This document shows, in pieces, positions 9,830 through 56,700 of a stretch of DNA of 64,000 nt (position 1 is the stretch's first letter; each line of letters opens with the position of its first letter). The DNA is from Schistosoma haematobium (taxonomy: Eukaryota; Platyhelminthes; Trematoda; Strigeidida; Schistosomatidae). The stretch is from assembly GCF_000699445.3 (NCBI RefSeq), contig NC_067196.1:38708616-38772615 (forward strand), written 5' to 3'. Below the pieces are notes generated by a model. That model was given only the letters and a program-made list of their open reading frames with translations, was not told the origin of the DNA and searched no databases. The position numbers were made by a program, and so were the translations under genes.

Positions 9830-10027
9830 TTAATCCTGACACACTGCTTTCCAGTGAAGGTCCAGCTTCTCCTTGAAAGTATTCAATGATGGGGCTGATA
9901 CCACTGGTCCGGGTAAGGCGTTCCAATGATTAACTACTCGATGAGAAAAACGGGACATCACTTTAAGTTTATTAGATTGTAGTGACTCATATTTATCACG
10001 AGAACACGACTGGTTTAATAAAAACAA
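9830..10027 (-). pseudogene. CR1-type LINE RT extreme C-terminus, fragment
   Basis: A 65-codon minus-strand frame carries RFSHRVVNHWNALP followed by VVSAPSLNTFKEKLD, the typical last 40 residues of CR1/Jockey-type reverse transcriptases. Its 5' part from about 9978 is the start of the gypsy LTR, so the first residues of the frame (MFLLNQSCSRDKYESLQ) are probably LTR sequence read by chance. It faces the fragment at 9440-9800 in inverted orientation. Confidence 0.65.
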
Positions 10028-10385
10028 ATATTATTATAACCAACTGTACCAGTGTTTGTTTTAACGTGCTTTTGTTTGACTGTGCTAATGACAGCTATTT
10101 TGTGCTTCCATTCTTATACCTACACTTTTGATTGTAACTTCGCGCGAATTCGGTTACGTTCTGTAACCAAGCTTGTATCCTGGCACGATCTCGGTATCCT
10201 TTCGATGCCACGAGATCGCCAGCAAATAAGCATCGACTTGGTCCATTAATTGCCTTCTGGTATTTGGCTTCTCGGAGATTTTACGGGTTTCTTTGGTTAC
10301 GTCCAACCTTCGCCTTCTGATTCGCTTGGCACGTGTTTCTTGGTAGCGGTGTTCATAGTTAATCTCAATTCGACACCACGCTACA
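9978..10385 (+). repeat. Gypsy array LTR, copy 1
   Basis: A 408-bp LTR inferred from the TGTAG...CTACA ends, followed by AT and TGGTGATCC as primer-binding site. An AATAAA lies inside at about 10017. The left flank is a CR1 fragment. Confidence 0.65.
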
Positions 10386-10519
10386 ATTGGTGATCCGAAA
10401 GTTTGGAACACGCCTCAAACTCTGGTCAAATCTTCCAAAGAAGCCAATTCGGTGAGTCTGATTTATCTATCCACGTCTGTCGTATATTTTCATATTTTTA
10501 AATATATAATATACTCGAC

Positions 10520-10650
10520 ATGACGGATAACGATAAGAATAGTATTAATATAATAGACTCACATGTATGTGTACCGAATCCTTGTCACTTATTATTCGCG
10601 TGACGATGAATTCCACGCTTTATTCGAGAAATTTTCCCCTATGAACTATT
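10520..10650 (+). pseudogene. Gypsy gag start, truncated (copies at 12597 and 14673)
   Basis: An ATG after the leader opens a frame MTDNDKNSINIIDSH that stops after about 27 codons. A gag-like DDEFHALFEKFSP continues in another frame before the sequence jumps to integrase. The same lesions are present in all three copies. A function as Gag is inferred from position only. Confidence 0.4.
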
Positions 10651-11497
10651 CTCCTCGCTGACCCGGCTGCTTGGTACGGAATGCATTCGCATAAGCATTA
10701 ACGTCTACCTCCCAGCATCAAATGGTTAAGTTGAACGGTTTCACTGCCAACTTAAAAGTGCTCTACGAGCACACGAGAACGACAACTGGTACGAAACCTT
10801 ATCGCTCGTCCTCTTAGGTATTTGAACGAGCTTGAAGGCAGATATACAATGTTCCGCCGCTGAACTGATATACGGCACGACATTGCGTCTGCCCGGAGAA
10901 TTCTTCACACCACGGAGCAGACCTGATTTCGGTAAATCAGACTACGTCCATCAACTGTCTGCATTTATGCGAACGCTGTCTCCGGTGTCAACTCGAATAC
11001 AACATCGACAGGTCGCTCTCCCTCGAGAGTTATCTACCTGTCCACATGTTTTCATACGAGTAGATTCGGTACGCAAACCTTGGCAACAACCATACGAAGG
11101 CCGTTTTCACGTGATCGCTCGTCACGAAAAGACCTTCAAGGTTGATCGACATGGCCGCGTCGAGATCGTCAGCATTGATCGTCTCAAACCAGCACACGTC
11201 GATGACAGTGCCCTATCTGACAACCTGCGATTCAATGCTAGACCTATTTAACCTAGCGGGATCCTCAAACCATCTTCAGGTCCCACGCTAGATACACCTG
11301 AGACCTCATTCTCACGTCCCGGTCAACAGCACTCGTCATCTGCACCGTCTACGGATGAGACGACAGTCTCACGTCCAGATCAGCAGACCACGCCTCCCTT
11401 GACTTCGGATGAGATTGCAGGCTCACGCGACGCGAACGAGACTGCTGTCTCACGTTCCGGTCGCCGAGTACGGTTGCCCGTACGCTTCCGCGATTAG
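10651..11497 (+). pseudogene. Gypsy integrase C-terminal remnant, copy 1
   Basis: It begins with an LTRLLGTE-like integrase segment, then a disrupted version of the HPxxNGxxERFHRQLK motif around the third catalytic residue. The open part 10832-11251 includes AAELIYGTTLRLPGEF and a GPY/F-like tail (KPWQQPYEGRFHVIARHEKT, SIDRLKPAHVD). After a stop at 11249-11251 a shifted frame continues through Ser/Thr-rich repeats to GRRVRLPVRFRD and the pol stop at 11495-11497. At least three frame breaks make it non-functional. Confidence 0.75.
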
Positions 11498-12054
11498 TCG
11501 CACAGTCAACAACCGATACGGTGTAGGATTCCTCCTATACTACACGCACGCTACACTCTTCTCTTTTTTGCTTTTCTTTTTGTTTCCTGAGCCCACGCCT
11601 TCGACCATCTCTGTTTGGTACCGTCGACTTCAGTCAACTTTGGCGAAAGCTGGCCTGATCACACACGCTCTTGTCAACGTACGCAGTCGATATATTGGTT
11701 TCGAATGCTTGGCATACGCTTGGTCTCGAACTTTGTCGTTTTGGTCGCTTTTGGTTCATCGGCTCAACGTGGTTTCGTCCTACGTCTGCAGCGTTCCTGG
11801 TGCGGACCCCTACGAACGCCATCTTCAGATTCTGGATACAAACCACTCTGGTGTAGCATGCCAACTCAAGCAACAAATACAGCACATCGCTCCTGGTACC
11901 GTTCTCCGAAAACGACCTTCGTTGGCAACTCGACGATCAACGATCGCTTTCCTGTTCGCCAATTTTTCCGTTCTACAATCGCTCGTCAGCCGATCAGTCC
12001 CACGATTTAAACCGCTATTTATCGAAAGTGTAAACCCTTTCTAGCGGGGGCTCC

Positions 12055-12462
12055 TGTAGTGACTCACATTTATCACGAGAACACGACTGGTTTAATAAAA
12101 ACAATTATTATTATAACCAACTGTACCAGTGTTTGTTTTAACGTGCTTTTGTTTGACTGTGCTAATGACAGCTATTTTGTGCTTCCATTCTTATACCTAC
12201 ACTTTTGATTGTAACTTCGCGCGAATTCGGTTACGTTCTGTAACCAAGCTTGTATCCTGGCACGATCTCGGTATCCTTTCGATGCCACGAGATCGCCAGC
12301 AAATAAGCATCGACTTGGTCCATTAATTGCCTTCTGGTATTTGGCTTCTCGGAGATTTTACGGGTTTCTTTGGTTACGTCCAACCTTCGCCTTCTGATTC
12401 GCTTGGCACGTGTTTCTTGGTAGCGGTGTTCATAGTTAATCTCAATTCGACACCACGCTACA
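12055..12462 (+). repeat. Gypsy array LTR, copy 2 (shared between units)
   Basis: Same TGTAG...CTACA boundaries as copy 1. It is preceded by a polypurine-like tract (GCGGGGGC at about 12044-12051), as expected at an internal/3' LTR boundary, and followed by the next primer-binding site. Confidence 0.7.
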
Positions 12463-12727
12463 ATTGGTGATCCGAAAGTTTGGAACACGCCTCAAACTCT
12501 GGTCAAATCTTCCAAAGAAGCCAATTCGGTGAGTCTGATTTATCTATCCACGTCTGTCGTATATTTTCATATTTTTAAATATATAATATACTCGACATGA
12601 CGGATAACGATAAGAATAGTATTAATATAATAGACTCACATGTATGTGTACCGAATCCTTGTCACTTATTATTCGCGTGACGATGAATTCCACGCTTTAT
12701 TCGAGAAATTTTCCCCTATGAACTATT

Positions 12728-13574
12728 CTCCTCGCTGACCCGGCTGCTTGGTACGGAATGCATTCGCATAAGCATTAACGTCTACCTCCCAGCATCAAAT
12801 GGTTAAGTTGAACGGTTTCACTGCCAACTTAAAAGTGCTCTACGAGCACACGAGAACGACAACTGGTACGAAACCTTATCGCTCGTCCTCTTAGGTATTT
12901 GAACGAGCTTGAAGGCAGATATACAATGTTCCGCCGCTGAACTGATATACGGCACGACATTGCGTCTGCCCGGAGAATTCTTCACACCACGGAGCAGACC
13001 TGATTTCGGTAAATCAGACTACGTCCATCAACTGTCTGCATTTATGCGAACGCTGTCTCCGGTGTCAACTCGAATACAACATCGACAGGTCGCTCTCCCT
13101 CGAGAGTTATCTACCTGTCCACATGTTTTCATACGAGTAGATTCGGTACGCAAACCTTGGCAACAACCATACGAAGGCCGTTTTCACGTGATCGCTCGTC
13201 ACGAAAAGACCTTCAAGGTTGATCGACATGGCCGCGTCGAGATCGTCAGCATTGATCGTCTCAAACCAGCACACGTCGATGACAGTGCCCTATCTGACAA
13301 CCTGCGATTCAATGCTAGACCTATTTAACCTAGCGGGATCCTCAAACCATCTTCAGGTCCCACGCTAGATACACCTGAGACCTCATTCTCACGTCCCGGT
13401 CAACAGCACTCGTCATCTGCACCGTCTACGGATGAGACGACAGTCTCACGTCCAGATCAGCAGACCACGCCTCCCTTGACTTCGGATGAGATTGCAGGCT
13501 CACGCGACGCGAACGAGACTGCTGTCTCACGTTCCGGTCGCCGAGTACGGTTGCCCGTACGCTTCCGCGATTAG
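12728..13574 (+). pseudogene. Gypsy integrase C-terminal remnant, copy 2
   Basis: Repeats the copy at 10651-11497, including the same frame breaks and internal stop; the longest open part is 12909-13328. Confidence 0.75.
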
Positions 13575-14130
13575 TCGCACAGTCAACAACCGATACGGTG
13601 TAGGATTCCTCCTATACTACACGCACGCTACACTCTTCTCTTTTTGCTTTTCTTTTTGTTTCCTGAGCCCACGCCTTCGACCATCTCTGTTTGGTACCGT
13701 CGACTTCAGTCAACTTTGGCGAAAGCTGGCCTGATCACACACGCTCTTGTCAACGTACGCAGTCGATATATTGGTTTCGAATGCTTGGCATACGCTTGGT
13801 CTCGAACTTTGTCGTTTTGGTCGCTTTTGGTTCATCGGCTCAACGTGGTTTCGTCCTACGTCTGCAGCGTTCCTGGTGCGGACCCCTACGAACGCCATCT
13901 TCAGATTCTGGATACAAACCACTCTGGTGTAGCATGCCAACTCAAGCAACAAATACAGCACATCGCTCCTGGTACCGTTCTCCGAAAACGACCTTCGTTG
14001 GCAACTCGACGATCAACGATCGCTTTCCTGTTCGCCAATTTTTCCGTTCTACAATCGCTCGTCAGCCGATCAGTCCCACGATTTAAACCGCTATTTATCG
14101 AAAGTGTAAACCCTTTCTAGCGGGGGCTCC

Positions 14131-14538
14131 TGTAGTGACTCACATTTATCACGAGAACACGACTGGTTTAATAAAAACAATAATTATTATAACCAACTGT
14201 ACCAGTGTTTGTTTTAACGTGCTTTTGTTTGACTGTGCTAATGACAGCTATTTTGTGCTTCCATTCTTATACCTACACTTTTGATTGTAACTTCGCGCGA
14301 ATTCGGTTACGTTCTGTAACCAAGCTTGTATCCTGGCACGATCTCGGTATCCTTTCGATGCCACGAGATCGCCAGCAAATAAGCATCGACTTGGTCCATT
14401 AATTGCCTTCTGGTATTTGGCTTCTCGGAGATTTTACGGGTTTCTTTGGTTACGTCCAACCTTCGCCTTCTGATTCGCTTGGCACGTGTTTCTTGGTAGC
14501 GGTGTTCATAGTTAATCTCAATTCGACACCACGCTACA
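14131..14538 (+). repeat. Gypsy array LTR, copy 3 (shared between units)
   Basis: Identical boundaries and flanks to the LTR at 12055, with the G-rich tract directly upstream. Confidence 0.7.
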
Positions 14539-14803
14539 ATTGGTGATCCGAAAGTTTGGAACACGCCTCAAACTCTGGTCAAATCTTCCAAAGAAGCCAA
14601 TTCGGTGAGTCTGATTTATCTATCCACGTCTGTCGTATATTTTCATATTTTTAAATATATAATATACTCGACATGACGGATAACGATAAGAATAGTATTA
14701 ATATAATAGACTCACATGTATGTGTACCGAATCCTTGTCACTTATTATTCGCGTGACGATGAATTCCACGCTTTATTCGAGAAATTTTCCCCTATGAACT
14801 ATT

Positions 14804-15650
14804 CTCCTCGCTGACCCGGCTGCTTGGTACGGAATGCATTCGCATAAGCATTAACGTCTACCTCCCAGCATCAAATGGTTAAGTTGAACGGTTTCACTGC
14901 CAACTTAAAAGTGCTCTACGAGCACACGAGAACGACAACTGGTACGAAACCTTATCGCTCGTCCTCTTAGGTATTTGAACGAGCTTGAAGGCAGATATAC
15001 AATGTTCCGCCGCTGAACTGATATACGGCACGACATTGCGTCTGCCCGGAGAATTCTTCACACCACGGAGCAGACCTGATTTCGGTAAATCAGACTACGT
15101 CCATCAACTGTCTGCATTTATGCGAACGCTGTCTCCGGTGTCAACTCGAATACAACATCGACAGGTCGCTCTCCCTCGAGAGTTATCTACCTGTCCACAT
15201 GTTTTCATACGAGTAGATTCGGTACGCAAACCTTGGCAACAACCATACGAAGGCCGTTTTCACGTGATCGCTCGTCACGAAAAGACCTTCAAGGTTGATC
15301 GACATGGCCGCGTCGAGATCGTCAGCATTGATCGTCTCAAACCAGCACACGTCGATGACAGTGCCCTATCTGACAACCTGCGATTCAATGCTAGACCTAT
15401 TTAACCTAGCGGGATCCTCAAACCATCTTCAGGTCCCACGCTAGATACACCTGAGACCTCATTCTCACGTCCCGGTCAACAGCACTCGTCATCTGCACCG
15501 TCTACGGATGAGACGACAGTCTCACGTCCAGATCAGCAGACCACGCCTCCCTTGACTTCGGATGAGATTGCAGGCTCACGCGACGCGAACGAGACTGCTG
15601 TCTCACGTTCCGGTCGCCGAGTACGGTTGCCCGTACGCTTCCGCGATTAG
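14804..15650 (+). pseudogene. Gypsy integrase C-terminal remnant, copy 3
   Basis: Third repeat of the same remnant with the same lesions; open part 14985-15404. Its 3' sequence ends at about 15819, where LINE sequence begins. Confidence 0.75.
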
Positions 15651-15819
15651 TCGCACAGTCAACAACCGATACGGTGTAGGATTCCTCCTATACTACACGC
15701 ACGCTACACTCTTCTCTTTTTTGCTTTTCTTTTTGTTTCCTGAGCCCACGCCTTCGACCATCTCTGTTTGGTACCGTCGACTTCAGTCAACTTTGGCGAA
15801 AGCTGGCCTGATCACACAA

Positions 15820-16823
15820 GAATAAGACGATCTAGCAATGCAATTGTGTTTAATATACCGGATACACATGCCCTTAAAAATATCAAATCTTGTCTGCTTA
15901 GAGCCAGCAATATGACACCCATACCATGTGTATGCACAAGATTAAAAAGAAGTCATCCTGGTATGCACTCACCGATCTTGTTCAAATTCAACTCATCTGT
16001 AGACGCCAGTGAATTTTTAAATTCCTCCAATTCATTGAGACAAAAACAGATTTTCAAGGATATTAAGACTCTTCCGGATAAAACACCATGCCAGCGAAAA
16101 GCAGGAAGAGATAACTACAGACCATCAGCTTCAAACTCTCAAATGCATCATAATCCTAATGGTTGTAACGTTAAGTCCGATTCTAAGAGGACGTCTAGCT
16201 TAACAACTTTGCCGCCACCAAAAAACTCTTCTGAATCTCATAAAGTTCAAAACCCAGAAGAAAGTAATCCCGATGTAGGTGGTGTCCATCCTCTTAAGAA
16301 TGTTGACTTAGATTCAACCCGAAGTAGTTGTGCTGATGAAGAATGGGATAACACAATCCAAACCGCTGTTAGTGCAACACCCAGTTACAGTAACTGTGCA
16401 ACGGATAACAGGAAAACTAATCATTACATTCATATAACTGACCACGCACTTAACGTTGATATATTCGAACCTCGCAAACCATCGCAAGTATGTTTAACAG
16501 TACACAATCCTCTCCAACTTATGAAGAAGCCGAAATCAACCACAAACCTTGGAAATAAACGTCTTAAACACGTTACCCATACGTCAGGTATAAATAGTTA
16601 TCTGAATTGTAATTGGCCACTTGGTCACAACCATAGACCTGATAGCCTTCTTGGTCCGGCTCCCAATATGTACAGTATGCCCTTATCAGATGTTATATCC
16701 AATAGCAATGAGAAGACTTTTTTTGTAATTCCGCCGGCTTTCCTGCCGGCAACGGTAAACATATTTCACATGATGACAAAGTGGTTGAATCTATTTCCCC
16801 TCGCAACACGACTCTTACCTTAG
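15820..16823 (+). pseudogene. LINE ORF1 protein, 5'-truncated
   Basis: An open frame without internal stops. Its early part (SSNAIVFNIPDTHALKNIKS, then an ILFKF strand) resembles the RNA-binding ORF1 domain of CR1/Jockey-like LINEs. It is followed by a long low-complexity, Asn/Ser/Pro-rich tail. The longer 351-codon frame beginning at 15768 takes its first 18 residues from the gypsy repeat, so its ATG is not native. The end overlaps ORF2 by 43 bp. ORF1 proteins bind LINE RNA; this copy lacks its original start. Confidence 0.6.
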
Positions 16824-19741
16824 CTAATCCTATGAGTATTCATGGAACTACCAATTGCGATTTATACTCTAACCTGCTTCACTATGATGATTCTGAGTTT
16901 CTTATTCTTTCGTTCAATGCCCGCTCTCTGTCTAATAAAATTATTCATCTTAAAACTCTTTTATTCCTTGTTAATCCAACCATTGTACTTATTACGGAAA
17001 CGTGGTGTAATTCATTTATATCCGATCATTCCTTGAATGTAGATAACTACGTTTTCTTTAGAACCGATAGATGTTATGGAATAGGAGGCGGTACAATTAT
17101 CTATGTCCGTTCAGACATTCAAGCGTGCAAATTTGAGGATAAATCCCTTGATGCTATAGACGACTCCACTTGGGTTACTGTAAACTGTGGATCCCAAAAT
17201 TATTTACTTGTGGGATGCATATATAGACCTCCTCATGCGGATACTAAGTTTGACAAATTACTAACAAACATATTTTCCATTGCTTCGCACCAACCGCATA
17301 CTTTTAAAATCATTGGAGGCGATTTTAACCTGCCAAAAATTAAATGGGGCTTGACTCCGGTACCAGGTCGATATAACAAGCTAGTTGAAACATTAGAAAT
17401 TTGTGGATGGGTTCAACAGGTCCGAAAACCAACCAGGGGGAATAATACACTTGATTTAATGTTCACAATCAACATAGACTCTATCTCAGTACATACCAGT
17501 CATGAGTTTTTTATGAGTGACCATAGAGTTGTATTGGGTATTATTCACTCTTTAAACGCCATACAATTGAACTCTAAAGCTTCATTGATGTACCAAAGCA
17601 GACATTTTGATCAACAAACATGGAAACGGACTGGAACTCTCATTCAATGTTTACCATGGGAAACTTATTTTACCACAAACAATGTTGACATTGCGCTTTC
17701 CAATCTATACCACAACCTGATATATTGTCTTGACTGCACTGCTCCAGTTATTGGCCGTGTGGCTTATAATGCTAATAGGGGCCAAAACACTTTTAAAAGA
17801 AAGCTGAGGAAATTAAAATGCCGCTACTACGAGCAGAATGATGTGTATGCACTTCAGAGTATACTTAAATTAATCAACAGAAATGCTTCATCTAAACGTA
17901 AGTATTTTATGAATATAGAAAATAAAGCTCTACGTAGTAAAAGCCCAGAATTATCAATACTTCGGCTTTTTAAATCCCGTGTAAAGTCGAATTCCCTTGG
18001 CACGACTAAATTCTTCATAGTTAACGGAAGCATTGTTAACGACCCGAATACTATATGTGAACAATTCAGCAAGCACTTCTCGCAGTGCTACAAAACTGGA
18101 ACTGGAAACTCCATCATTACATTTCCAATGCTGACCTCCAGACATCTGTCGAAAATTGATTTTACACCCTCCAACATCAAGCAGGCCATAGGTGCCCTGA
18201 AAAAGTCTTATGATGGTGGACCTGACGGGATACCTTCATCATTTGTGAAATATGGAAGTAGAGAATTTCCACTATTTTGTTTGAAACTTTTCAATCTATC
18301 TATGGAATATGGGACCTATCCATCTGTATAGAAAACATCCCTTATCACCCCTAGATTCAAAACAGGACCACGTAGTGATATTATTAACTATAGGCCAATT
18401 AATTTGACATCCGTGCTATCAAGAACCATGGAAAAAATCATCCACAAACAGCTACTATCATTTTTACTTTCGGCTAGTATGATCAGCCCATCCCAACACG
18501 GGTTTATGACTAAACGCTCATGTTTCACATCGCACCTGGAGTTTTTTGATCAAATTACCCAGAAAAGAGATGTTGGTCAGTCAGTGATAATTCTTTACTT
18601 CGATTTTAGTAAGGCTTTCGACAGTGTCTCACACAAACTTCTTCTTTTAAAACTCTCTTCATTTGGCATACAGAATCCCCTTTTATCTTGGCTCAAATCT
18701 TTTTTAGAAGAACGTAACCAAATCGTTCGCTTTGGATCATGCTACTCTAAACCTGTGAATGTAACCAGCGGGGTTATACAAGGAAGTGTGGTTGGTCCAT
18801 TACTCTTTCTCCTTTTTATCAATGATGTGTGTTCCCTCTTTCAGTATGGCAAGCCTTTTCTTTTTGCTGATGACCTGAAAGTAGTTTATTCGTTCTCTTC
18901 TCCCATGAAAGAAAGCTATATTTCAGCGGTAATCCAAGAGGAAATAAACAAGTTGTACGAATGGACTATTTCGTGGAATATGCCACTTAATGTTGACAAA
19001 AGTGGATTTATTCACATTGGTCGCTGTCTTAACTTAAATCTGACTGTACAGACACATACACTCAAACCTCTTAACACTGTTCGTGACCTGGGTTTAAGAT
19101 ATAGCAACAGTCTGAACTTTTCTGAACACATTATATCTCAAGTATCCAAAGCTAGAAAGCTCATCGGATTGATAATGCTAAACTTCAATAATATCGAATC
19201 GAGATTGTTACTATACAGAAAATGTATCTTACCCATTCTTGAATATGGTATTTTAGTTTACAGTAATTGTAGACATACTGATCTGATTAGAATTGAAGGT
19301 GTTCAAAGAAGGTTCACTAAAGCTGTTCTGCGGTATTCCGATAACAAAGACTATTACCAAAGATGTCAACAACTCAACTTAGAGCCTCTTTGGATCAGAC
19401 GTATCAAATTAAATCTTGTCTTTATCTACCGGCTTATTAACGGTATTTCCTACTCTTCGGTATCCACCCCTTCATACCTTATGATATCATCCCACAATCT
19501 ACGCAATAGGGAGAATATTCTAGCGATTCCAAGGACCCACACAAACTTACGCCAGAATTTTTTCCTTATTCGCTACTCAACCATGTGGAATAGACTGCCA
19601 GTGAACCTCCGTTGCAGTGAAACTACAACCCGGTTCAAAAGTCTCCTTGACGATTTTCTTTCCGAAAGTGGATTATGTCACTTATTGAATATCAATGTAT
19701 TCAATAATGATTTATACAAACAAGGTCCGTCATCCATTTAA
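16781..19741 (+). pseudogene. LINE ORF2: AP endonuclease plus reverse transcriptase, one in-frame stop
   Basis: The N-terminal apurinic-type endonuclease shows SFNARSLSNK, ITETW, GGGTIIYVR, GCIYRPPH, GGDFNLPKIKW and MSDHRVV in order. The reverse transcriptase follows in the same frame with NYRPINLTS, QHGFMTKRSC, LYFDFSKAFDSVSH (motif A), GVIQGSVVGPLLFLLFIND (motif B) and FADDLK (motif C), ending in the CR1-type distal motif MWNRLPVNLR. The only defect seen is a TAG at 18329-18331 between the two domains, where no frame shift is needed to continue. All catalytic motifs read intact, so this is a very recent casualty or possibly a sequencing or assembly error. Confidence 0.85.
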
Positions 19742-20722: not shown

Positions 20723-20782
20723 GAAGAAACCCGAAATGGTTTCTTCACAACACTTATGTACCCATAAGATGTTTGTGAAGAA
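20723..20782. repeat. Two overlapping inverted repeats (competing hairpins)
   Basis: GAAGAAACC (20723-20731) pairs with GGTTTCTTC (20738-20746). The block TTCTTCACAACACTTATG (20741-20758) also pairs, with two bulged bases, with CATAAGATGTTTGTGAAGAA (20763-20782). The TTCTTC at 20741-20746 is shared, so the two stems exclude each other. Confidence 0.75.
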
Positions 20783-22697
20783 TAATAATAATAATAACCC
20801 TCACTCTCTGTCTGCGGTCACATAAGAAATTTCCTATCCACTCGTGTACAGTACCTATTATTCCGAAGCTCGTGAGCTTCTGCATAAGACCTACGTGTGA
20901 AACCTTATCAAATGCTTTGATAAAATATATGAATATCACATCGACAGACAGACCGTTATCTAGGGCTGCTGTCCAATCCTTCCTCGCAATAAGCAATTTA
21001 GTCAAGCATGAACGCTTGTTACGAAATCCGTGTTGCTCAGGAGCTAACAGATTGTGTAAATCTATGTGGCTTAGCAACCTAACCCGAATTATCTTTTCGA
21101 GTAACTTAACGACTATGCTAGTTAGACTGACAGGCCGGTAGTTAGATACTATCTGTCGCTGACCGTCCTTAAATATAGGACTAACTATAGCGTCCTTCCA
21201 ATCTCTAGGGAGTTGAGCGAGTGAGAGGGACATGTTGAAGAGTGTCGCAAGCGGTTTTGAAATAATGTCCGCAAGAGATGACAGCGACCGTGGATGTAAC
21301 CCGTCAGAGCCCGGTATCTTACCAGGTTTGAGGTTAGTTATCAACGGAAGGACAGTTTCCTCAGTCACCTGTACAGATTCAATGGTTGGTATCTCGGTGT
21401 GAGTGGGACAAGTATTTGTTACAATAAACGTAGAGAAGACTTCGCTAAAATATTCTGAAAAAGTCTCAGCTTTTGCCCGATCTGATTCAGCTAGTAATTC
21501 TGAATTTTCGTGTAACAGTAACGGGGGAATACCATCACTACGTTTCATTCGCCAATTAACATGCGAAAACAATCGTTTCGGACAAGTACGGCTATCATAT
21601 ACTAACTGTTGTTCGTAAGTGGTATGGGATTTGGCTATGGTTTTCTTACAGTTATTACGGAATTTTTGGTACTCACGCTTAAATGATGCATGACCTGTCA
21701 ACAAGAACAAGTCCCAGAAGTGTTTCCTACGCTTTAACAGCTTCCGGGGTTCCTTATTAATCCGTGGAGGGTAATGTGATAGCTTACGTGCTGACCATGG
21801 GATAAACGGCGACGTTACGGACTCGAATGTAGCCTTGAACTTATTCCATTCATCTTCGATCAATCCATCCGCGTCGACCGACCAATCAGTCGAGATAGCA
21901 CAGTTCCTGATTTCCGGAATATTGGCTCGCCAGATATTGGGACGGTGTGGAGCAGATACGAATTGTATACCATGTGTCCTAAACTTAAAGTGAAGTACAA
22001 CGTGATCACTGTTCGCTAGTGGGGGAAGGTGCTGAATATCGAAGACATTCTCACAGTGGTGGGTGAGGGCGAGGTCCAGCAGTGACGGATCATGTTGCAA
22101 ATCAATATGTGTCGGTTTTGTGATACATTGTACAAGTACACACTGAATAACGGTAGATAAACGGTCGCTATCGAAACCACTACCTGGAACTGTAAGCTCT
22201 ATCCAGTTGAGATGCGGTGCGTTGAAGTCCCCAATGATGAGACAACATTCTGCCATACTCCAAGAACAGATGTGTCTTAGGATAAAGTCGTCAGCAAGAC
22301 AAAACAGACTACTGTATATTCCCCCTATAGTCATTAACGCATTTCTGGATTTAATCTTACAACATGCAACCTCACATGTGCCACTTATATAAGCCTCCGA
22401 TATGGTTGATTGTATACGAAAGTGATCCCTAACGTATAATATTATACCTCCCCCTTTGCGACTTGAAACTCTATCACTTCTAATACAGATATAACCTGCA
22501 ATGAAAGGAGAACAGTCTATATCTACTGTGAACCAAGTTTCTGTAACAACGATTATATCGGGACATAATTCTTCCACCATCAGACTTAGCTCGGACGTTT
22601 TATTTCTAAGACTACGAGCGTTCGTGTAGCACACACTTAAAGTGTTTTGGCAATCAATCGTTCTACCCATACAGGCCTCGGAAGCATTGGCTTCCAA
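20754..22697 (-). pseudogene. LINE ORF2: AP endonuclease plus truncated reverse transcriptase
   Basis: The endonuclease motifs are CYTNARSLRNK, VVTETW, GGGIILYVRD, IGDFNAPHLNW and NSDHVVLHF. Reverse transcriptase begins with LKPGKIPGSDGLHP, NYRPVSLTS and QHGFRNKRSC. Motif A reads IYFIKAFDKVSH, so the catalytic aspartate normally found before S/xKAFD is missing. The protein ends before motifs B and C, and the last 13 residues come from a TTATT repeat and hairpin. It cannot encode an active polymerase. Confidence 0.8.
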
Positions 22698-23797
22698 GAC
22701 CTGACTACCCGAAAACCCTTAATGGTAAGGTTATTTTCGCCATTTAACTTGCGAGTCCTCAACTCCGTAAGAGCATTCTTCCACTTGATTCGATCCTCAA
22801 GCGGCCAATCTGGTCGAATACGGATATTTGAGGCACGAGTTTTTGGTGCGCTTTTCAATAATATGTCTCTTTCTTCGAAACTCCCGAGAACCAGCTTCAG
22901 GATTCTCCTTGGTTGGGTCTCGCCTCCAACCCATTTACCGAGTCGTATTACTTTTGTAATATGTACCCCTGAAACCTCTTCAGGTAGCATATTTCTTACC
23001 ACAGACTCCACTAACTGCAGGTCATGTGCATGTCTTCTAGCAGGATCATTATCTATCGACTCCTCTAGATTCCAAATAATTAAACTAGGAAGGGGTTTAG
23101 CTTCCTTTGAAATTGCGTTAACAGCTTTGGACCGTGACGATAGATCCTGTATATTAACTACAGGTATCTTACGATTAGCTTTTATTGTAACAGAGTCCTG
23201 TGAGTGACTCACAACAGTGTTAGACGAAGCTTTACTTTGGAGCTTTGGCGGATTGGTCTGAGAGTCCACCAAGGACTTATTAAGTAAACAGTCATTAGTT
23301 TTAGCTGTCATTTGATTTTTCTTCTCAGTCACGCCAGGATGGGTTTCACTCTTACCATCAGATTTTGGTAGTGCAGTATGTGACTCACAATGAGAGTCCA
23401 TCAGTGAGTTACTAACTACCTGTGTACTGCCTACAGCTGTTTTCCTTTCGTTTCGTTTCCTACGTACCGTATTCCATTTTTCATCCCTCAAGACATTGGG
23501 ACTATTTGAAACAGTGATGGTTTTATCCAGTTCGTCGGTTCCCACTAAAGGTGCATTGTTATCAATGTCAGTACCAGGTGGTATTACTCCCCTTGTTAAT
23601 GCTAACGGCGATCTCACTTTTGCGTCGGTCAGAGTCGGTTGTTTGAGGCGTCGCGTGACGGCAGGTACTACACTGACACAATCGTCACTGTCATTGCCGG
23701 TGTTGTCAGCGCATGTGTCATCGTTTTTCTTGCAGGCCAAAGCCAATAGGCCCATAGCCTCCTGAATTAGTACCTTTTTATCTGTACAGCAGAACAT
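22637..23797 (-). CDS. LINE ORF1 protein (386 aa)
   Basis: An uninterrupted frame. The first 220 residues are low-complexity, Ser/Thr/Asn- and Lys-rich. A folded C-terminal domain (about 230-386) has PSLIIWNLEES, HDLQLVESVVRNML, VHITKVIRLG and RRILKLVLGSFEERDILLKS, the RRM-like layout of LINE ORF1 proteins that bind element RNA. The end overlaps ORF2. The start at 23797 is the first ATG of the frame. Retroelement, not a host gene. Confidence 0.65.
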   Translation of the reverse strand: MFCCTDKKVLIQEAMGLLALACKKNDDTCADNTGNDSDDCVSVVPAVTRRLKQPTLTDAKVRSPLALTRGVIPPGTDIDNNAPLVGTDELDKTITVSNSPNVLRDEKWNTVRRKRNERKTAVGSTQVVSNSLMDSHCESHTALPKSDGKSETHPGVTEKKNQMTAKTNDCLLNKSLVDSQTNPPKLQSKASSNTVVSHSQDSVTIKANRKIPVVNIQDLSSRSKAVNAISKEAKPLPSLIIWNLEESIDNDPARRHAHDLQLVESVVRNMLPEEVSGVHITKVIRLGKWVGGETQPRRILKLVLGSFEERDILLKSAPKTRASNIRIRPDWPLEDRIKWKNALTELRTRKLNGENNLTIKGFRVVRSWKPMLPRPVWVERLIAKTL

Positions 23798-24303: not shown

Positions 24304-35326
<11,023 letters not shown>

Positions 35327-47700: not shown

Positions 47701-50700
47701 AGTGAACTTGCTGGAAGTTGAAATAATTGACGATTTGTTAACAATAGTCATAAAACTACTTGTAAGTAATATGTATCAAGTTGAAATAATTGACTTGTCA
47801 ACATTAGTCACAAAACTGCTTGTAAGTAATATGTATCAAGTTGAAATAATTGACTTGTCAACATTAGTCACAAAACTGCTTGTAAGTAATAAGTATCAAA
47901 ACGTGGCTGAGAAGACGTCGCAGTCATCAGGAGAGAAAAGCTTCAGTACGTCAAAGCACAACATTTGAATACTGGATCAAAAGACATTTCAGACCGTAGA
48001 ACACACCGCAAGATACAAACAGATGATCCAAGGCTACGTATATGTATTATATAAACACTGTGATTTCTCACAACAAACATTGATTGCTTCTGCCTATTGC
48101 TCTGTTCTACACAATCACCACAGATAAAATAGTCAAATTATAAGCACAGAATAATCATTAATCTTTATCAATTATTACCTGACAAAACGGAATATTTTCT
48201 GGAAGCAGTTCAGCCAACTGTTTTATCCAAGCTGTAGGTTCACGCAAAGGAAAAAAATCTGTTACGATACAGCTGATATTAACATTTTGTATCAAACTTA
48301 AAACGGACTGAGCGACTGTATCAGCATAACAACAATTATTTACTGATTCCGGTAATTTACGCTTGATGCCCGTTTTGACTGACTGATTGGTCGGTGAGCT
48401 GTTATTGGCAACTGATGTAATATGAAATGGTATGCAAAGTTCACGACATTCCTAAATAAAAAAGGAGGCCAAACTTTACTATGTTAAATGTTACACATAT
48501 TAACACGATAAAATCTTACAAATGCAACTCATATACGAAATGCTTATATATATACCATTTAAACACAGCACTCAATAAAACAGAAACTAAAATATGCATC
48601 ATACAAAGGCGTTGTACAGACACAAATAAAAAGAGAAATAAACGATAATAAAAAAATAACAGAAGCAGATTTCAAAAAGATCTTGGAATTCTCTTCTTTA
48701 TACACATGAAATAAAAACAACAGCGCAATTGTCACGTGTAAGTATTATGAGTTTCACCTGGTAACGATAACTCAGAATATCCAGGACCAGAAACAGGGTG
48801 GGCCCAAAGTCGCCAATCTTAGAGATTACGTTTGTCTCTCAAACATTAGTTAATAGGAAACATATATATTTTTAGTAACTGAAACTAACGTTCAAATATT
48901 TCATTTTACTAAGACAATGACTTGCTGTGATCTCCCATAGGTCTTCACCAACTCACTGATGTATTGTGAGTCAGGTTTGTGTTAAGGAACGGAAACAACT
49001 GAATAAGTTATCTGATAAGAAGTTGGATTAAATAACACATATTATACGAATAACATGGAATCCTTATTTTTGTGAGGATAGTGAATTTTAACAATACTGT
49101 AGCAGAGCTCCTAAGCTTTAATAAACAGATGGAATTAATTCAATCAGTAAGTCTACAACTAACTTTCTATAACATAGCGGTTCCTCTTCTTCTAAGTGAA
49201 GCTTCTAGTAAAGCCTAACTAAATGGCAGTACATAGTTAGCAAAATCCTTTGATAGCAAACAGTCAGTGAGTGAACTTGTGATGTCTAGTATCATGTTAA
49301 GTACAAATGGGTTATTCTAGCCTCCAGACAGATCAGTTTATTCATTCTTCTTGAGTCATGTTTTGACCTTGTCAATTATTAGTTTATTAACCTCGACTGT
49401 TCTTGTATGAGTATAGGTGTGTGTACTGCCTACCCTATTAATTACATGTCTTTGGCTTATTTTGTTTCGCTTTATCAAAACCAGTTGGCTCATTCGCCTT
49501 CTCCGCTTCCCTTTCCCTTTTAATTCTGAATATCTATTTGGATAAACAAGTGCTTAAAATAAATTAATTCAACGCAAACCGTATTTACATTCTCATTACC
49601 GCCGTCGCACGAACGGGGTTAGCCTAGGTAGTATACGGATTAGAATGGCAGATTTATTTTTATAGTACGTCTAAACGTCCATTCAAATCGGAGTCAGATC
49701 AGGACGCAGCACAATAACTAACATAACCTACAATGATAAATTATATAAATACGAATTATTTTTAAGTAGAACAACCTAATTATTGCTTTGTAACATTATA
49801 AAGTACTAGATAATAGAAACATGTCAGATTACCAAGTAATTCATACAATATATAAAATTGTCTTAAGTTAGACCACCACTGAGAAACTGAAAGCACTGGA
49901 CGACCATTTCGTTCTAGTATGGGACTCCTCGGCAGTTCATGATCTCAAGAAAAGTGAGCAGTCTTCACAACCACTTGATGACAAATATAACATTGTGATT
50001 TTTTACTGAGTAGTTGGTAACCATGATTTCTTTAAAAGTAACATCATTATTCATTAATGTCCCACTCATGGAGACTCCAGAATATACTTGTGAACAACTT
50101 GCAAAAAAGGGATGGAAAGTGAAGTTCCAATTAATATCATAAAACGATTGTTACTGAAATGCACTTTGAGTGCGAATTTCAAGTTTAACGGAGACGTCGA
50201 TAGACGAATATATGGAGTTGTAATGGGTTTGCTATTAAGTCCCATACTAGCTGACATTTTTCTGACTAAACTAGAAAATGGTCCACAATTTATCAGAAAA
50301 TTCACACTTTATTGTCGGTGTATAAATGAGACGTTCATCCTCTGTAAAGATAGTACACTCAGTCATTAGGTTAACTTCCAAAGAAAGTGAAAGTAGAACA
50401 GTTTTTCCGAACACTTTGTTAACAAAAAGAGCTGGTGCGTTTATGTTATGACCTTGGATCGCTTTTACCCCGTGATACTTGTTATGACTTGACCTTGGTC
50501 TGTGTAGTCTAAATTATGACCTTGACGCGTTAGGCTGAGTGGCTTAACCTTGAGTCTAATATGCGTGAGTTCGAGATGGGGTAGAGAGAACTATTCTAAA
50601 TCCTGATTGGTTGGCAAGCACGCGAGTGAAAGAAGACAAGACAGTTGGAACACTAAACTCTGGATTCTCTGAATTCGGATTACTACAAAAATGTACATGA

Positions 50701-53700
50701 ATAAATAAGTGCATATCTTGACCACGACGTACGATAATTTGGAAAAATACAGTTATGCCCGAACAGGGAATTAGGGTAGAAATTATAGTGCAAAATATAA
50801 TGTTTAAATTACAATATTTTTGGAACAAAAAAGGGTATGCTAGTGAATGATACATAGAACGAAAGCTCGTGTTATGTAGAATAAGATAGGGACAAAAATA
50901 AATATAAGTGTTTTACAGGTTTTGAATGAAATGCAATAACGTCCCAAGAAAATAGCTTTCGTAATTGTCTGGGCTTCTTAGTTCCCCGTTCATAACACCT
51001 TCCCCCTTTAAAAAAAAAGAAAAAAAAATGGTTAGTTACTATATACAGGTAAGTGCTGAGATATCATCATTGATATCTTCCTTCGGAAACGTATGTTCTC
51101 CTCTTTGGGTCTACCTGTAGAATATCTGGTCTTCTGCGTTTCCGTGATGCTTTCCTAATAGGACTTTGTTCAGGTTGCGTGGTCTTCTGAGTCGCTGAGC
51201 ATTTTATGTCAAAACTGTCCAGAATGATTCTCCACATTGAGTCTAATTTCTCGGTTTTCTGTGAAGTGCCAGCATTTTCCAGTATGTGGTTGACATGGCG
51301 TGTCCACTTCTGTCCTTCAACTTCCACCACATACATTACGTTCCCTTGTCTCTTAAGTATGCGTCCACTGGTCCATTGTGGAGGTGAATATCGGAAATCG
51401 CGGACGTATACCTTCTGATTTTTCTGGAAAATTCTGCGTTTCGCCCCATGATGGCGATCAAATTGGTTTTCCATCTTTCTGTTTCTTTTTCCGATGTCTC
51501 TTTGCTGTGGTTTCATGGCATCGAGGGCAGTTCTTACTTTTCTACCAAACATAATTTCTGCTGGGGACATTTGATTTGGTGTTGATGGGTTTGGAGTTGT
51601 TCTACAGACCAAGAGAAAGTCATCAAGAATCTCCTCTATCTTTCCCTCCCCTTTTGCCTTCAGTAGCGCTCTTTTGAAGGTATCTACAAACCTTTCGGCC
51701 TGACCATTCGATTGTGGATGGTACGGAGGTGAACGGACATGTTTGACTCCAAACCTCTTGCAGAAATCTGAGAAGATGGAAGAAATAAACTGAGTGCCGT
51801 TATCTGTCACGAGAACATCTGGAACTCCAAAACGGGAGAATAACTGCCGTAGCTTCATGATAGTCTGTTGCGAAGTGATTTGATTTATAGGAAAAATCTC
51901 CGGCCATTTTGAATAAGCATCAACACAAACGAGGAAGTACGTACCCTGGAATGGGCCAGCAAAATCAACATGTATACGCGACCAAGGTTCTTCTGGAGAT
52001 GGCCAGGAATGTAGTTCAGCTTTTCGTGGACACTTAGAAACCTCAGCACATTTTCTGCACGCACGCACGAAATCTTCGATGTGTTCATCGATATTAGGCC
52101 AATATACATAACTTCGAGCAATAGCTTTCATTCTTCCAGTACCTGGATGGGCTGTATGCAGTTGTTTCAGGACGAGTGAGCGTAAGTTATACGGAACCAC
52201 TACGCGATCAGCAACCATTATACAGTCATTGACGATGGATAAAGATTGGCGTCGTTGATAATACTGTTTCAGTTCATGAGATGTTATACGTGGGGGCCAA
52301 CCACGCTGGATAAATGTAGATAATCGTCTTAAGATAGGATCGCGGCGAGTGTGTTCAGCGATTCGAGCAGCTGTCACTGGAAGAATTTGTCGAAGATGGT
52401 TTATGTAAGATACGGACGACAATTGAGAGGAAGCAGAAGACTTTGATGTAGACATAACATTAGAAAGAAGTACATGAGATTCCGAAGTTTCACCAGCGCA
52501 TACTTTGTCTGAAGTATTCGATTTGGAAATTTTATGAGAAGGCAATGAATCGGCGGTATTTGATTTGACATGGTGAGAACACATAACATTTGAATTGTTT
52601 GATTCAGAAAGATCATAAGAACATGTTTCATCAGAAGCATTTAATTCGTTAATATCCAGAGAGGATGATTCGTCGGAGGCATTTGATTTAGAAATATCAT
52701 TAGGGATTTGGATAGAATCATAGGAAACATTTTGAGAACATACCTCATCTAATAATTTATTCAAAGTATCAACATGTGCAATCCAATCTAATCCCAATAG
52801 ATCTAAATCGTGTCGATTTGTTAGATAACAAACATCTGTAAATTTACTTCCCATAAGTTGAACATTGCATAGGACCTCTCCTGTCAACTTTACTATGTCT
52901 CCTGACGCATTTCGGGTGACATGTTCTGTCGGTCGGATGGATGGGCATCCTAACTTGTGCCATGTGTTCTTTGAAATCAACGTGACATCAGAAGCAGTGT
53001 CTAACTGAAGTCGTATAAGTTTTCCATTTACTAATAAATTTACAAATTTCCGCCTATTTTTAAATCCAACTTTAAAGGTTGCAAACGTGGTTTTAATCTG
53101 ACTATTTGATTGTTGCTTTGAATTTTCACTACGATGTTTAGTCTTGCGTTTATTTAACGAACAATGACCTTCTTTGTGGCCAATGCGATGACATTTGCGG
53201 CATTTATGATTCTTAAACGGACAGAATTTTGCAAAATGCCATGCTCCGCAGAACCAGCATGGTGATGGGGGGTTGGCAGGTTTTTTCATGCTTGTACAGT
53301 TTTGTTTCGATGATTTTATGGATCGGAGCGCATTAATTGAATCAGAACCGGAAGGTTTACCCTTCTGTTGCACCATCGCAGTGTCATGCTTGAGATTAAG
53401 TAACCGCTGACATTCGGTTGTGACCATTTGTAATGTCATATTTGGTTCTTGTTCAATGCGTACCAACATTCTGGTACGGACATCTGCATCTTCTTCATTC
53501 TTTAGACCACATATGAAAATCAAGCATTTAAATTGGTCCGCTGTGATTTCGTTTATTTTGAAGCGTTCGCACTGTCGATTTACCTTCCCGGCATACGTGA
53601 GATAATCGTCCTCTGGAGATTTCGTTATTTGGAAGCATTTATAGCGAGTATTAAATAATGAGGACTGTTCATCGAAAATATCAGATAAAATCTGGACTGT

Positions 53701-56700
53701 ATCTTTGAATGATACATCTCGTGGATTTTGCGGCAAGATAAAATTCACATATTTATTATATTCCTGTGTTCCCAGTCTTCTTAAGAGTAAGCGGACTTTT
53801 GCTGCGTCATCAAGATGCGAGCATTCAACGCGGAAAATATCTTCACAGCGGTGAAACCACGAACTGAAAATGACATTAGCTTCAGGATCATACTGGAATT
53901 CAGAAATAGAATTTATGATGCTTTCATGCTTATCTGATTGACAAGCTGAGGACGACTGTAATGAGAACATTCGTGCGAATGCATCCAAAAGCTTCGTCTG
54001 ATTTGCATCATTTTGTGCTTGCTGCATTTGAAGAATAGTTTTAAGGTCATCCAATGAAACAGGCATTTTGTACTGGATCAATCAATATAGGAAAGAAAAA
54101 ACAAAATTCTCCGTCGCCAGTTGTTATGACCTTGAATCGCTTTTACCCCGTGATACTTGTTATGAATTGACCTTGGTCGGTGTAGTCTAAATTATGACCT
54201 TGACGCGTTAGGCTGAGTGGCTTAACCTTGAGTCTAATATGCGTGAGTTCGAGATGGGGTAGAGAGAACTATTCTAAATCCTGATTGGTTGGCAAGCACA
54301 CACGTGAAAGAAGACAAGACAGTTGGAACACTAAACTCTGGATTCTCTGAATTCGGATTACTACAAAAATGTACATGAATAAATAAGTGCATATCTTGAC
54401 CACGACGTACGATAATTTGGAAAAATACAGTTATGCCCGAACAGGGAATTAGGGTAGAAATTATAGTGCAAAATATAATGTTTAAATTACAATATTTTTG
54501 GAACAAAAAAGGGTATGCTAGTGAATGATACATAGAACGAAAGCTCGTGTTATGTAGAATAAGATAGGGACAAAAATAAATATAAGTGTTTTACAGGTTT
54601 TGAATGAAATGCAATAACGTCCCAAGAAAATAGCTTTCGTAATTGTCTGGGCTTCTTAGTTCCCCGTTCATAACAGTTTATAAGAAAGAACTTAAACGAG
54701 GAAAGTACCTGGAAAGGTCAGTACACATTTCCTTAGTTTTTACCTCTACAGTACAAAAGAAACTTGATGAACACTTAGTTCTATATGTTCTGCTGATATA
54801 GTTGAAAAGCTAAACGGCATGCGTATTACTTGTAGGGATACAGACACTCTAGAAAGTTTATAAACAAATATACGACCACAAAGATTAGAATAGGCGAAAT
54901 ACAAACAGTGAATAAGAAATCCCTGTTCATATGCCTACAATTCAGAGGTGATGCAGCCAGTGAAATACTAATCTAGAAATTACGTAGGACAATTCAGAGA
55001 ACGTTAAACGCCAGAAAACTGAGACTAGTGTTTCCTACCCACCAAGGCTAAAAGACGACTTACCTACAACCTCATTTGTATTTCACAATTCGACTTCTCT
55101 TGTGGAGCAAGTTATATTAAACGAAGTTCTAGGGATTTACATTTTCGTGATCCTAAACATCTCTCAGAGTGACTAAGAAAAGGTGTAATCAAGAAAGAAA
55201 ACAGCTTAATACTAGCCCATTTAGTCCAAACCGGTTACAGCGCCAGTATAAATCAATCTTAATAATTTATCAGGTTAGTAATTTTTTGCCAAAATCCGTC
55301 TTACTCAAAGTCCTTCAAACAGCAGAAGCGATAGCCATTCAGATTAAAAAACTGGGACTAGGTGTACAGAGAAGTATATTCAATCCATTATTTTACCTTG
55401 GCTCCAACCTCAGGACCAATAAATCAATAGTAATTTTAACAACAGAATGGCCCAACTTGACCAATGTACATTGAACTTTTCTTAGATATTATTGTCTTTG
55501 TTATTCTTATTTGTATATCCTTGTATTATCATTACCAATATTATTATTATCACTATTATTATTATTATCATTAATTAATAAGTAATCTGAAAAGAATACG
55601 AAGATTTTGATTTTATCCGGTACTGATATAGCATTGTGCGCTTTAATTTTCTTAAATAATACAAGCTGCTCCACGATGTCACCTATCATCTGCAACATAA
55701 GACGGAACGATCCAAGTAAGATAAACTAACGGATAAGTGACTAAATATATGAGGATGGCATTGCTGGAAGAGATAAAATTTAACTTTAGTTAGCAACTAA
55801 ACATCGACAGAAACCCTGACAGGTAATTGTGACATCTCATTAACAGGGCCTCTCACTCGAACATTAGGACTAATCACTTAATTAAATACGAATATAACAC
55901 TTACTTTCTCTACTTCTTTCAATCCTTCAACCATAAAGGTATAATGTCGTAACGTTTCGGCTTGAAATTTCGGAACCAAACAGAAACAAACGTGTAGTGG
56001 GACTTTAAATTTCAATGCTAAACGTTGAGCAAACAAGAAAGCCCAATTATCTAAAGGAAACATTTCATTTTTAAACAAGTAATAAAAAAATAGTTAAAAT
56101 GATGGGGATAATACTAATAAAGTTAATGCAAAATTAATATATTGAAACAAATTAGCATAATTGATAGAATGGCATAGGGTAATAAGTAATTAGTTTTATC
56201 ATCCCAAAAAATTACCAAAGTATTGATTTGGTACTGAATTATACTGAATTAACATGATTAGCTTTTTAAAAACAGAATCTAGCCAGAGAAACGACTAACA
56301 CAAATGTCATAGTGTTCAGGTAGCATTTAGAAGTAAACTTTTGCCATTTATAATTATATTTGATTGAAAATGGACCAACTTATTGACTCTATTGTTCATG
56401 AAGTCAATACAATAGAAAGTGACGGAATTAAGCCTTCGATGGTTTTTCACCCAGCGAACAATCTGATAGTCGTAGTCATCTTTATTGTGTATGAATTATA
56501 CTTTAGTACCATTATTCGATTTGCAACGACAAGTATGTATGTTCATTTTCTCTGCCTCTGAGCACAAACATATAAGACAGTTTCCATCGGATTTGAAATT
56601 TTTCAACCTAGCACAAACATCAGTTTTAACAGACGCATTTTAAAAGAATTCCAAAGCAAACCCCGTAGATATAAAGTGGTTATGATTTCGTCTAGCTTGC

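What the first reader, a model, noticed from the sequence alone, without database searches (positions are those of the whole stretch)
50444..54675. Young, structurally complete LTR retrotransposon that encodes Gag, protease and integrase but no reverse transcriptase
LTRs, 5-bp target duplication, PBS and PPT are all present and the LTRs are almost identical, so the element moved recently. Its 1004-codon frame is uninterrupted yet skips RT and RNase H: protease (LLGLDW) leads into a repeat linker and then the integrase zinc finger. Most RT-less LTR elements (LARDs, TRIMs, TR-GAG) lose coding capacity or keep only Gag. Keeping Gag, PR and IN open suggests a defined non-autonomous lineage that supplies its own capsid and integrase and borrows RT in trans.
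Basis: partly seen in the sequence, partly recalled or inferred. Interest (0 to 1): 0.78.

Follow-up and report, generated by a model that had tools for sequence, protein, structure and literature searches.

The report
RT-less retrotransposon family with autonomous partner
A jumping gene in the blood fluke Schistosoma haematobium has cleanly lost its copying enzyme but kept its shell, protease and insertion-enzyme genes, and it has still spread to many places, most likely by borrowing the missing enzyme from a nearly identical complete sister element.

Summary
Window 50444-54675 is a complete LTR retrotransposon (554-bp LTRs with 6 differences, TSD GTTTA, PBS, PPT) whose open frame carries Gag, protease and integrase but no RT/RNase H. 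It is no lone freak: the same junction occurs 70 times in the S. haematobium assembly, at about 28 sites; 13 of 13 dispersed copies read whole have their own TSD. A 5.67-kb partner with nearly the same LTRs carries 480 codons of RT-RNase H at that point; 37 copies were counted. Both breakpoints share ACAAA, so the short form (J1) is a microhomology deletion of the long one. The repeat linker is ancestral. At least two further RT-removing junctions exist (J2, J3). Protease, integrase and RT signatures occur 150, 144 and 39 times. Marker linkage to the deletion is strongest beside it, which fits recombination with long copies. By spacing, most units lie in tandem arrays; two arrays checked are each bounded by one TSD. 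That J1 uses its own Gag and integrase is unproven. Closest precedent: mouse IAP 1-delta-1. New variant of a known kind.

The parts
50439..50443 (.). target-site duplication GTTTA, left copy
50444..50997 (-). 3' LTR of the element (sense is minus), 554 bp
50998..51009 (-). polypurine tract AAAGGGGGAAGG next to the 3' LTR
   Evidence: sequence
51067..54066 (-). open reading frame, 999 codons from the first ATG: Gag-protease-linker-integrase (1,004 codons stop to stop, to 54081)
51715..51885 (-). integrase core (rve, matched part; the core begins further upstream)
   Evidence: PF00665 5.2e-10
52039..52197 (-). integrase H2C2 zinc finger
   Evidence: PF17921 2.3e-14
52386..52390 (-). deletion junction J1: 5-nt microhomology ACAAA where the RT-bearing partner has 1,440 bp (480 codons) of RT-RNase H
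52391..52776 (-). repeat linker (roughly 14-residue Ser/Asn/Asp units), also present in the RT-bearing form
   Evidence: repeat unit by eye
52777..53040 (-). aspartic protease
   Evidence: PF13975 2.6e-6
53161..53259 (-). two zinc knuckles of Gag
   Evidence: motif read by eye in the translation
53665..53925 (-). Gag domain DUF7083
   Evidence: PF23309 4.6e-24
54108..54119 (-). primer binding site TGGCGACGGAGA, 2 nt after the 5' LTR, by position and TGG start (primer tRNA gene not identified)
   Evidence: tRNA patterns negative
54122..54675 (-). 5' LTR of the element, 554 bp, 6 differences from the 3' LTR
54676..54680 (.). target-site duplication GTTTA, right copy

Best explanation
The element is one copy of J1, a single-origin internal-deletion derivative of a Ty3/Gypsy-type element of S. 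haematobium. A switch between two ACAAA motifs removed 480 codons holding RT and RNase H, in frame (breakpoints shown; that it happened during reverse transcription is inferred). LTRs, PBS and PPT stayed as in the parent, so J1 RNA can be packaged with RNA of the RT-bearing partner, copied by the partner's RT and inserted by integrase, leaving 5-bp TSDs (dispersal and TSDs shown; supply of RT in trans inferred, as J1 has none). Co-packaging also explains recombination between J1 and long copies (marker pattern shown, route inferred). J1 can still encode Gag, protease and integrase; whether these help it, the partner or nobody is open. Some insertions then became tandem arrays.
For: Same junction in 70 places, 69 perfect and 1 with one mismatch, and in 15 of 15 whole short units (window plus 14 fetched, picked by LTR likeness and short spacing). 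13 of 13 dispersed whole J1 elements have perfect and mutually different TSDs (one, L039, lies in a short ATAAT-type repeat and says little), 9 of 13 with identical LTRs. Partner: 37 copies by left-junction pattern, the same 37 loci plus 2 outliers by RT catalytic pattern; of 3 read whole, 2 have an open frame of 1,484 codons and all 3 have TSDs and identical LTRs; its RT piece matches RVT_1 and RNase H in 2 of 2 copies given and Ty3 RT best among solved structures. Deletion 1,440 bp with 5-nt microhomology. Between 3 whole long and 14 J1 units (window left out) 2 sites are fixed, 9 and 43 nt from the junction; in the larger sample (31 J1, 23 long) neither stays fully fixed, but r2 with the deletion is 0.57, 0.55 and 0.39 at -9, -43 and -76 and at most 0.32 at the other sites tested; 22 sites carry both alleles at two or more copies in both classes. 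P0001 (999 aa, 28 member sequences) is the J1 form on a 48.97-Mb contig; none of the eight large contigs here has that length.
Against: No expression, particle or mobilisation data. J1-private changes show no purifying selection (40 N: 19 S, binomial P 0.57). 5 of 15 whole J1 units and 1 of 3 long units have a broken frame, all by single-base length differences, which may be real or assembly errors. 47 of 70 J1 units lie in 5 arrays by spacing, so much of the copy number may be DNA-level expansion. Gene conversion at DNA level could mimic RNA recombination. The Spearman test of linkage decay is not significant (P 0.098); near versus far is (P 0.004), but sites are not independent.
Confidence: 0.87

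Rival explanations
1. Pure passenger: J1's Gag-protease-integrase frame is only open because the copies are young; the long partner supplies every protein and J1 contributes nothing.
For: Private changes look neutral (40 N: 19 S); J1 copies with a broken frame also have TSDs and LTRs with 0 or 1 difference (L035, L037, L042, L045).
Against: No stop among 59 private changes (P about 0.08); 4 of 5 deletion classes keep frame (P about 0.045; two classes judged by distance only); variants present in several J1 copies, those shared with long copies included, lean to synonymous (30 N: 26 S against 35: 15 for singletons, Fisher P 0.11). None is decisive.
Confidence: 0.5
2. Copy number is mostly DNA-level: a few insertions expanded by unequal exchange between LTRs or by insertion of concatemers, and J1 moves rarely.
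For: 47 of 70 J1 units in 5 arrays, 29 of 29 J2 units in 2 arrays, by spacing; two arrays whose two ends were read are bounded by one TSD each (ATTGT, TAATT).
Against: 23 J1 units are dispersed; all 13 of them that were read whole have different TSDs.
Confidence: 0.35
3. The identical junction arose many times independently at the microhomology.
For: ACAAA stands at the left breakpoint in the long copies found by pattern and at both in L032, and other junctions did arise independently (J2, J3).
Against: 31 of 31 J1 units share the allele at -9 and 30 of 31 that at -43, while 16 of 23 and 17 of 23 long units carry the other allele.
Confidence: 0.05
4. Assembly artefact: RT-RNase H collapsed or dropped.
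For: Repeats in long-read assemblies can be misassembled; single-base frame breaks occur in runs of one base.
Against: 70 junction matches next to 37 RT-bearing copies in one assembly; J1 protein from another record.
Confidence: 0.02

Closest known systems
Mouse IAP 1-delta-1 elements (PMC6466679, PMC7411935, passages read)
   Same: An internal deletion gives an open fused gag-pol frame; not autonomous; needs full-length partners in trans; responsible for most new IAP insertions.
   Different: There 1.9 kb of gag and pol is removed; here RT-RNase H alone, with Gag, protease and integrase kept. There a cis effect of the fusion protein is reported; here nothing is tested. Vertebrate ERV against a flatworm Ty3/Gypsy-type element.
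Wheat semi-autonomous pairs: RLG_Sabrina_SA (Gag-Pro), RLG_Quinta with RLG_Cereba (PMC9744471 passages, PMC11302176 abstract and section 5)
   Same: Non-autonomous partner keeps an open gag or gag-pro frame; RLG_Quinta shares LTR ends and PBS with its autonomous partner.
   Different: Those lack RT and integrase; RLG_Quinta split off 28-35 million years ago by the authors' estimate. J1 keeps integrase and is about 99% identical to its partner.
LARD, TRIM and TR-GAG elements (PMC4558846 passages; TR-GAG recalled)
   Same: LTR, PBS and PPT kept, proteins borrowed.
   Different: They lack most or all coding sequence (LARD, TRIM) or keep gag only (TR-GAG, recalled).
Schistosoma mansoni Nonaut LTR families (named in PMC8293314, passage read)
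   Same: Listed among LTR elements of the same genus, non-autonomous by name.
   Different: Their structure was not available to me, so the relation is untested.
Tandem LTR-retrotransposon arrays in plants (PMC11899658, abstract and passages)
   Same: Units share LTRs and the array is flanked by one 5-bp TSD.
   Different: One rice locus in the passages has two internal regions and three LTRs; here up to 22 units by pattern spacing, in an animal and mostly of RT-less forms.

Membership tests
Ty3/Gypsy-type LTR retrotransposon | LTRs, PBS, PPT and short TSD | tested here: met
   the primer tRNA was not identified
Ty3/Gypsy-type LTR retrotransposon | gene order protease-RT-RNase H-integrase, RT of the Ty3 kind | tested here: met
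   for the partner only: (Ty3 RT chains 4ol8 and 7q5b best); the window copy lacks RT-RNase H
Ty3/Gypsy-type LTR retrotransposon | clade placement by an RT tree | not tested
   no tree was built
Non-autonomous element with an autonomous partner | LTR sequence and ends as in the partner, same PBS region | tested here: met
   99% LTR identity to partner copies and whole-element alignment
Non-autonomous element with an autonomous partner | active in the same period | tested here: met
   identical LTRs in 9 of 13 J1 and 3 of 3 long elements, (copies picked by LTR likeness to the window)
Non-autonomous element with an autonomous partner | co-expression and mobilisation in trans | not testable with these tools
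   no expression data
LARD / TRIM / TR-GAG | no coding capacity, or gag only | tested here: not met
   protease and integrase present and open
IAP 1-delta-1-like deletion element | internal deletion with fused open frame | tested here: met
   1,440 bp, frame kept
IAP 1-delta-1-like deletion element | fusion protein helps its own RNA in cis | not testable with these tools
   selection counts inconclusive

The most novel reading that the evidence does not exclude
Losing RT while keeping Gag, protease and an integrase part in frame is a recurrent and successful strategy in this family: at least three independent microhomology-bounded deletions (J1, J2, J3) each multiplied, one of them (J2) is present in two Schistosoma species, and together they outnumber RT-bearing copies 107 to 37 by units. 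The shortened polyprotein would be useful in cis, and the RT-less forms would behave like defective interfering genomes that feed on, and perhaps limit, the autonomous form.
Probability: 0.28. Interest if true: 0.75.

Novelty: new variant of a known kind. Interest (0 to 1): 0.55.

Why it matters
It gives a young, nearly identical pair of RT-bearing and RT-less elements in an animal, with the deletion placed around RT-RNase H. That makes an old question testable: which proteins of an LTR element act in cis and which in trans, and why non-autonomous forms overtake their helpers. The repeated RT losses and the long tandem arrays also matter to annotators, since such arrays look like satellites and their polyproteins appear in databases as unnamed proteins.

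Tried and rejected
Primer tRNA: two patterns for a tRNA gene with the acceptor stem implied by the PBS found nothing; primer left open. Selection on J1: polymorphism counts were inconclusive. Array ends: 2 of 5 J1 arrays could be checked at both ends; none of the long, J2 or J3 arrays. Two further places with a protease-integrase spacing unlike J1, J2, J3 or the long form (C1:88.76 Mb, spacing 1074; C2:76.15 Mb, spacing 973) were not read; their frame status is by distance only, and the long form's own spacing varies from 2440 to 2446 in the loci I compared. The listings show the first 100 of 150 and of 144 places, so spacing was not checked for all; 144 of the 150 protease places are accounted for by adding the J1, long, J2 and J3 counts, 6 are not. 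In one search the automatic measure worked for J1 only; for J2 and J3 it failed because the long copy used differs in the linker, and I read their microhomology by eye from window stretches. Literature: no description of RT-less Gag-protease-integrase elements of this family was seen in the listings or in the passages read; one search returned no paper, for the IAP precedent, gave nothing useful. The library is open-access only. Rejected: assembly collapse, recurrent identical deletion, LARD/TRIM/TR-GAG membership.

Rows left out: the linkage analysis used 31 of 70 J1 units (all 23 dispersed, 8 from arrays) and 23 of 37 long units (all 20 dispersed, 3 from arrays); the right-flank fragments of two long loci (L097, L103) gave no match and were left out. 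The fixed-difference count left out the window copy.

Changed on checking: confidence in the main reading from 0.88 to 0.87 and in the novel case from 0.30 to 0.28, because the J3 record ends inside the integrase core and the J2 records are partial or begin inside Gag, so whole frames are shown for J1 only.
Full report
What is there. The window lies in contig C2 of a 400,267,458-base, 163-contig genome. The contig length 93,306,550 equals the longest scaffold of the S. haematobium assembly Shae.V3, which has 163 scaffolds and 400,271,889 bases in the paper's table, 4,431 more than here (PMC8846543, passages). At 50444-54675 stands an LTR element on the minus strand with 554-bp LTRs (6 differences), TSD GTTTA, PBS and PPT. 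Its frame is 999 codons from the first ATG. Four pieces of it match a Gag domain (DUF7083), an aspartic protease, the integrase zinc finger and the integrase core, with no RT or RNase H.

The partner. A search with the LTR scored 40 of 791 candidate places, 99-100% identical; the spacing of neighbouring hits falls into two groups, about 3,674 (once 3,728) and about 5,114 bases. Twenty stretches were fetched. Fifteen J1 units (window included; two of them in one array) share the same junction to the base; three long elements carry 1,440 bp more at that place. Both breakpoints in the long form read ACAAA. The extra piece is 480 codons, holds RVT_1 and RNase H and is closest to Ty3 RT among solved structures. 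Two of the three long elements have an open frame of 1,484 codons; the third is broken by single-base differences. The repeat linker is present in long copies and in relatives from other schistosomes.

Mobility. Thirteen dispersed J1 elements were read whole; 13 of 13 have perfect and mutually different 5-bp TSDs (that of L039 lies in a short repeat), and nine have identical LTRs (the others 1, 1, 2 and, in the window, 6 differences). Three of three long elements have TSDs and identical LTRs. The copies were picked by LTR likeness to the window.

Census. Patterns of 30 bases with up to 3 mismatches, read against the whole genome (backward-read controls zero in each): J1 junction 70, long left junction 37, protease 150, integrase 144, RT catalytic site 39, of which 37 fall in the long loci and two are outliers with 2 and 3 mismatches. 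Counted by hand from the listings, J1 has 23 dispersed copies and 5 arrays (12, 7, 16, 3 and 9 units), the long form 20 dispersed copies and 5 arrays (3, 3, 2, 5 and 4 units; the last two on unplaced contigs C51 and C65), so about 28 sites against at most 25. By sites the two forms are nearly level; by units J1 leads 70 to 37.

Other RT-less forms. A protein search with the stretch around the junction found 12 proteins. P0001 is the J1 form, 999 aa, from an S. haematobium record on a 48.97-Mb contig, a length that none of the eight large contigs here has. P0005 (S. mattheei, partial) and P0006 (S. haematobium, beginning inside Gag) join the linker to the integrase core at another point (J2), and P0004 (S. 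haematobium, ending inside the integrase core) at a third (J3); both junctions also remove the zinc finger. In the window genome J2 occurs 29 times, all in two arrays (22 and 7 units), and J3 8 times, three of them in one array. Microhomologies are 5 nt (J1, measured), 7 nt (J2) and 4 nt (J3), the last two read by eye from window stretches located, where the automatic measure failed for them; the chance of three junctions at least this long is about 3e-8 under a simple random model. Judged by protease-integrase spacing against the usual 2,445, J1, J2, J3 and the C1:88.76 Mb place keep frame and the C2:76.15 Mb place does not. Thus 107 of 144 classified units lack RT; 6 of 150 protease places are unclassified.

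History. Between 14 J1 units and 3 long units two sites are fixed, 9 and 43 nt from the junction. With 31 J1 and 23 long units they are no longer fully fixed, but association with the deletion is strongest there, and 22 sites are shared polymorphisms. One origin followed by recombination with long copies explains this best; template switching in shared particles is one route, DNA gene conversion the alternative. The near-versus-far contrast is significant (P 0.004), the rank correlation with distance is not (P 0.098), and sites are not independent.

Does J1 use its own proteins? Not shown. J1-private changes are 40 nonsynonymous, 19 synonymous and no stop, against a neutral expectation near 68: 28: 4 per cent; the long sample has 145, 83 and 4. 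Ten of 15 whole J1 units keep the frame; the breaks are single-base length differences in short runs of one base, some shared between loci, so either they are assembly errors or copies with a broken frame have moved. The weak signs for use are the missing stops and the in-frame deletions.

Arrays. In the one array stretch read through (L034) neighbouring units share one LTR; for the others this is inferred from the period. The 3-unit array on C5 is bounded by ATTGT and the 12-unit array on C1 by TAATT, as described for rice tandems (PMC11899658). By spacing, 96 of 144 classified units lie in arrays. Units of different arrays can share a marker haplotype (L085 with L086 and L087; L034a and L034b with L083 and L084), which is unexplained.

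Relation to what is known. The way it works is closest to mouse IAP 1-delta-1: internal deletion, fused frame, help in trans, success in new insertions (PMC6466679, PMC7411935, passages). Wheat has semi-autonomous Gag or Gag-Pro elements (PMC9744471 passages, PMC11302176 abstract and one section). I saw no precedent for removal of RT-RNase H alone with Gag, protease and integrase kept, within the searches named under Tried and rejected. I file it as a new variant of a known kind.

Noticed in passing
G000 C3:41544885-41616781 and C8:2009903-2029741: Two arrays of the J2 form, 22 and 7 units, periods about 3.25 and 3.30 kb by pattern spacing, with one wider gap in the first; all J2 units found lie in them.
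   Followed up: partly
G000 C1:88759794 and C2:76151707: Two protease-integrase pairs with spacings (1074 and 973) that fit none of the read forms; perhaps further RT-removing deletions.
   Followed up: no
L034, L083-L087: Arrays on different chromosomes, or far apart on one, share the same marker haplotype, as if array units had a common source.
   Followed up: no
window 9978-15818: Repeat with a spacing of about 2,076 bp, three copies, stretches compared 99-100% identical; one of its open frames has no Pfam match.
   Followed up: partly
window 16712-19741 and 20754-22718: Non-LTR retrotransposon frames with endonuclease and RT domains.
   Followed up: partly
window 31233-31778: Frame with the start of a DEAD-box helicase domain, perhaps an exon or gene fragment.
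   Followed up: partly
window 50112-50369: Frame beside the element that resembles a Penelope-like RT by eye; Pfam found nothing.
   Followed up: partly
P0009 (S. rodhaini, 717 aa): A relative with Gag and protease that keeps only the start of RT and then jumps to a C-terminal piece, perhaps another RT-less derivative in a different species.
   Followed up: no
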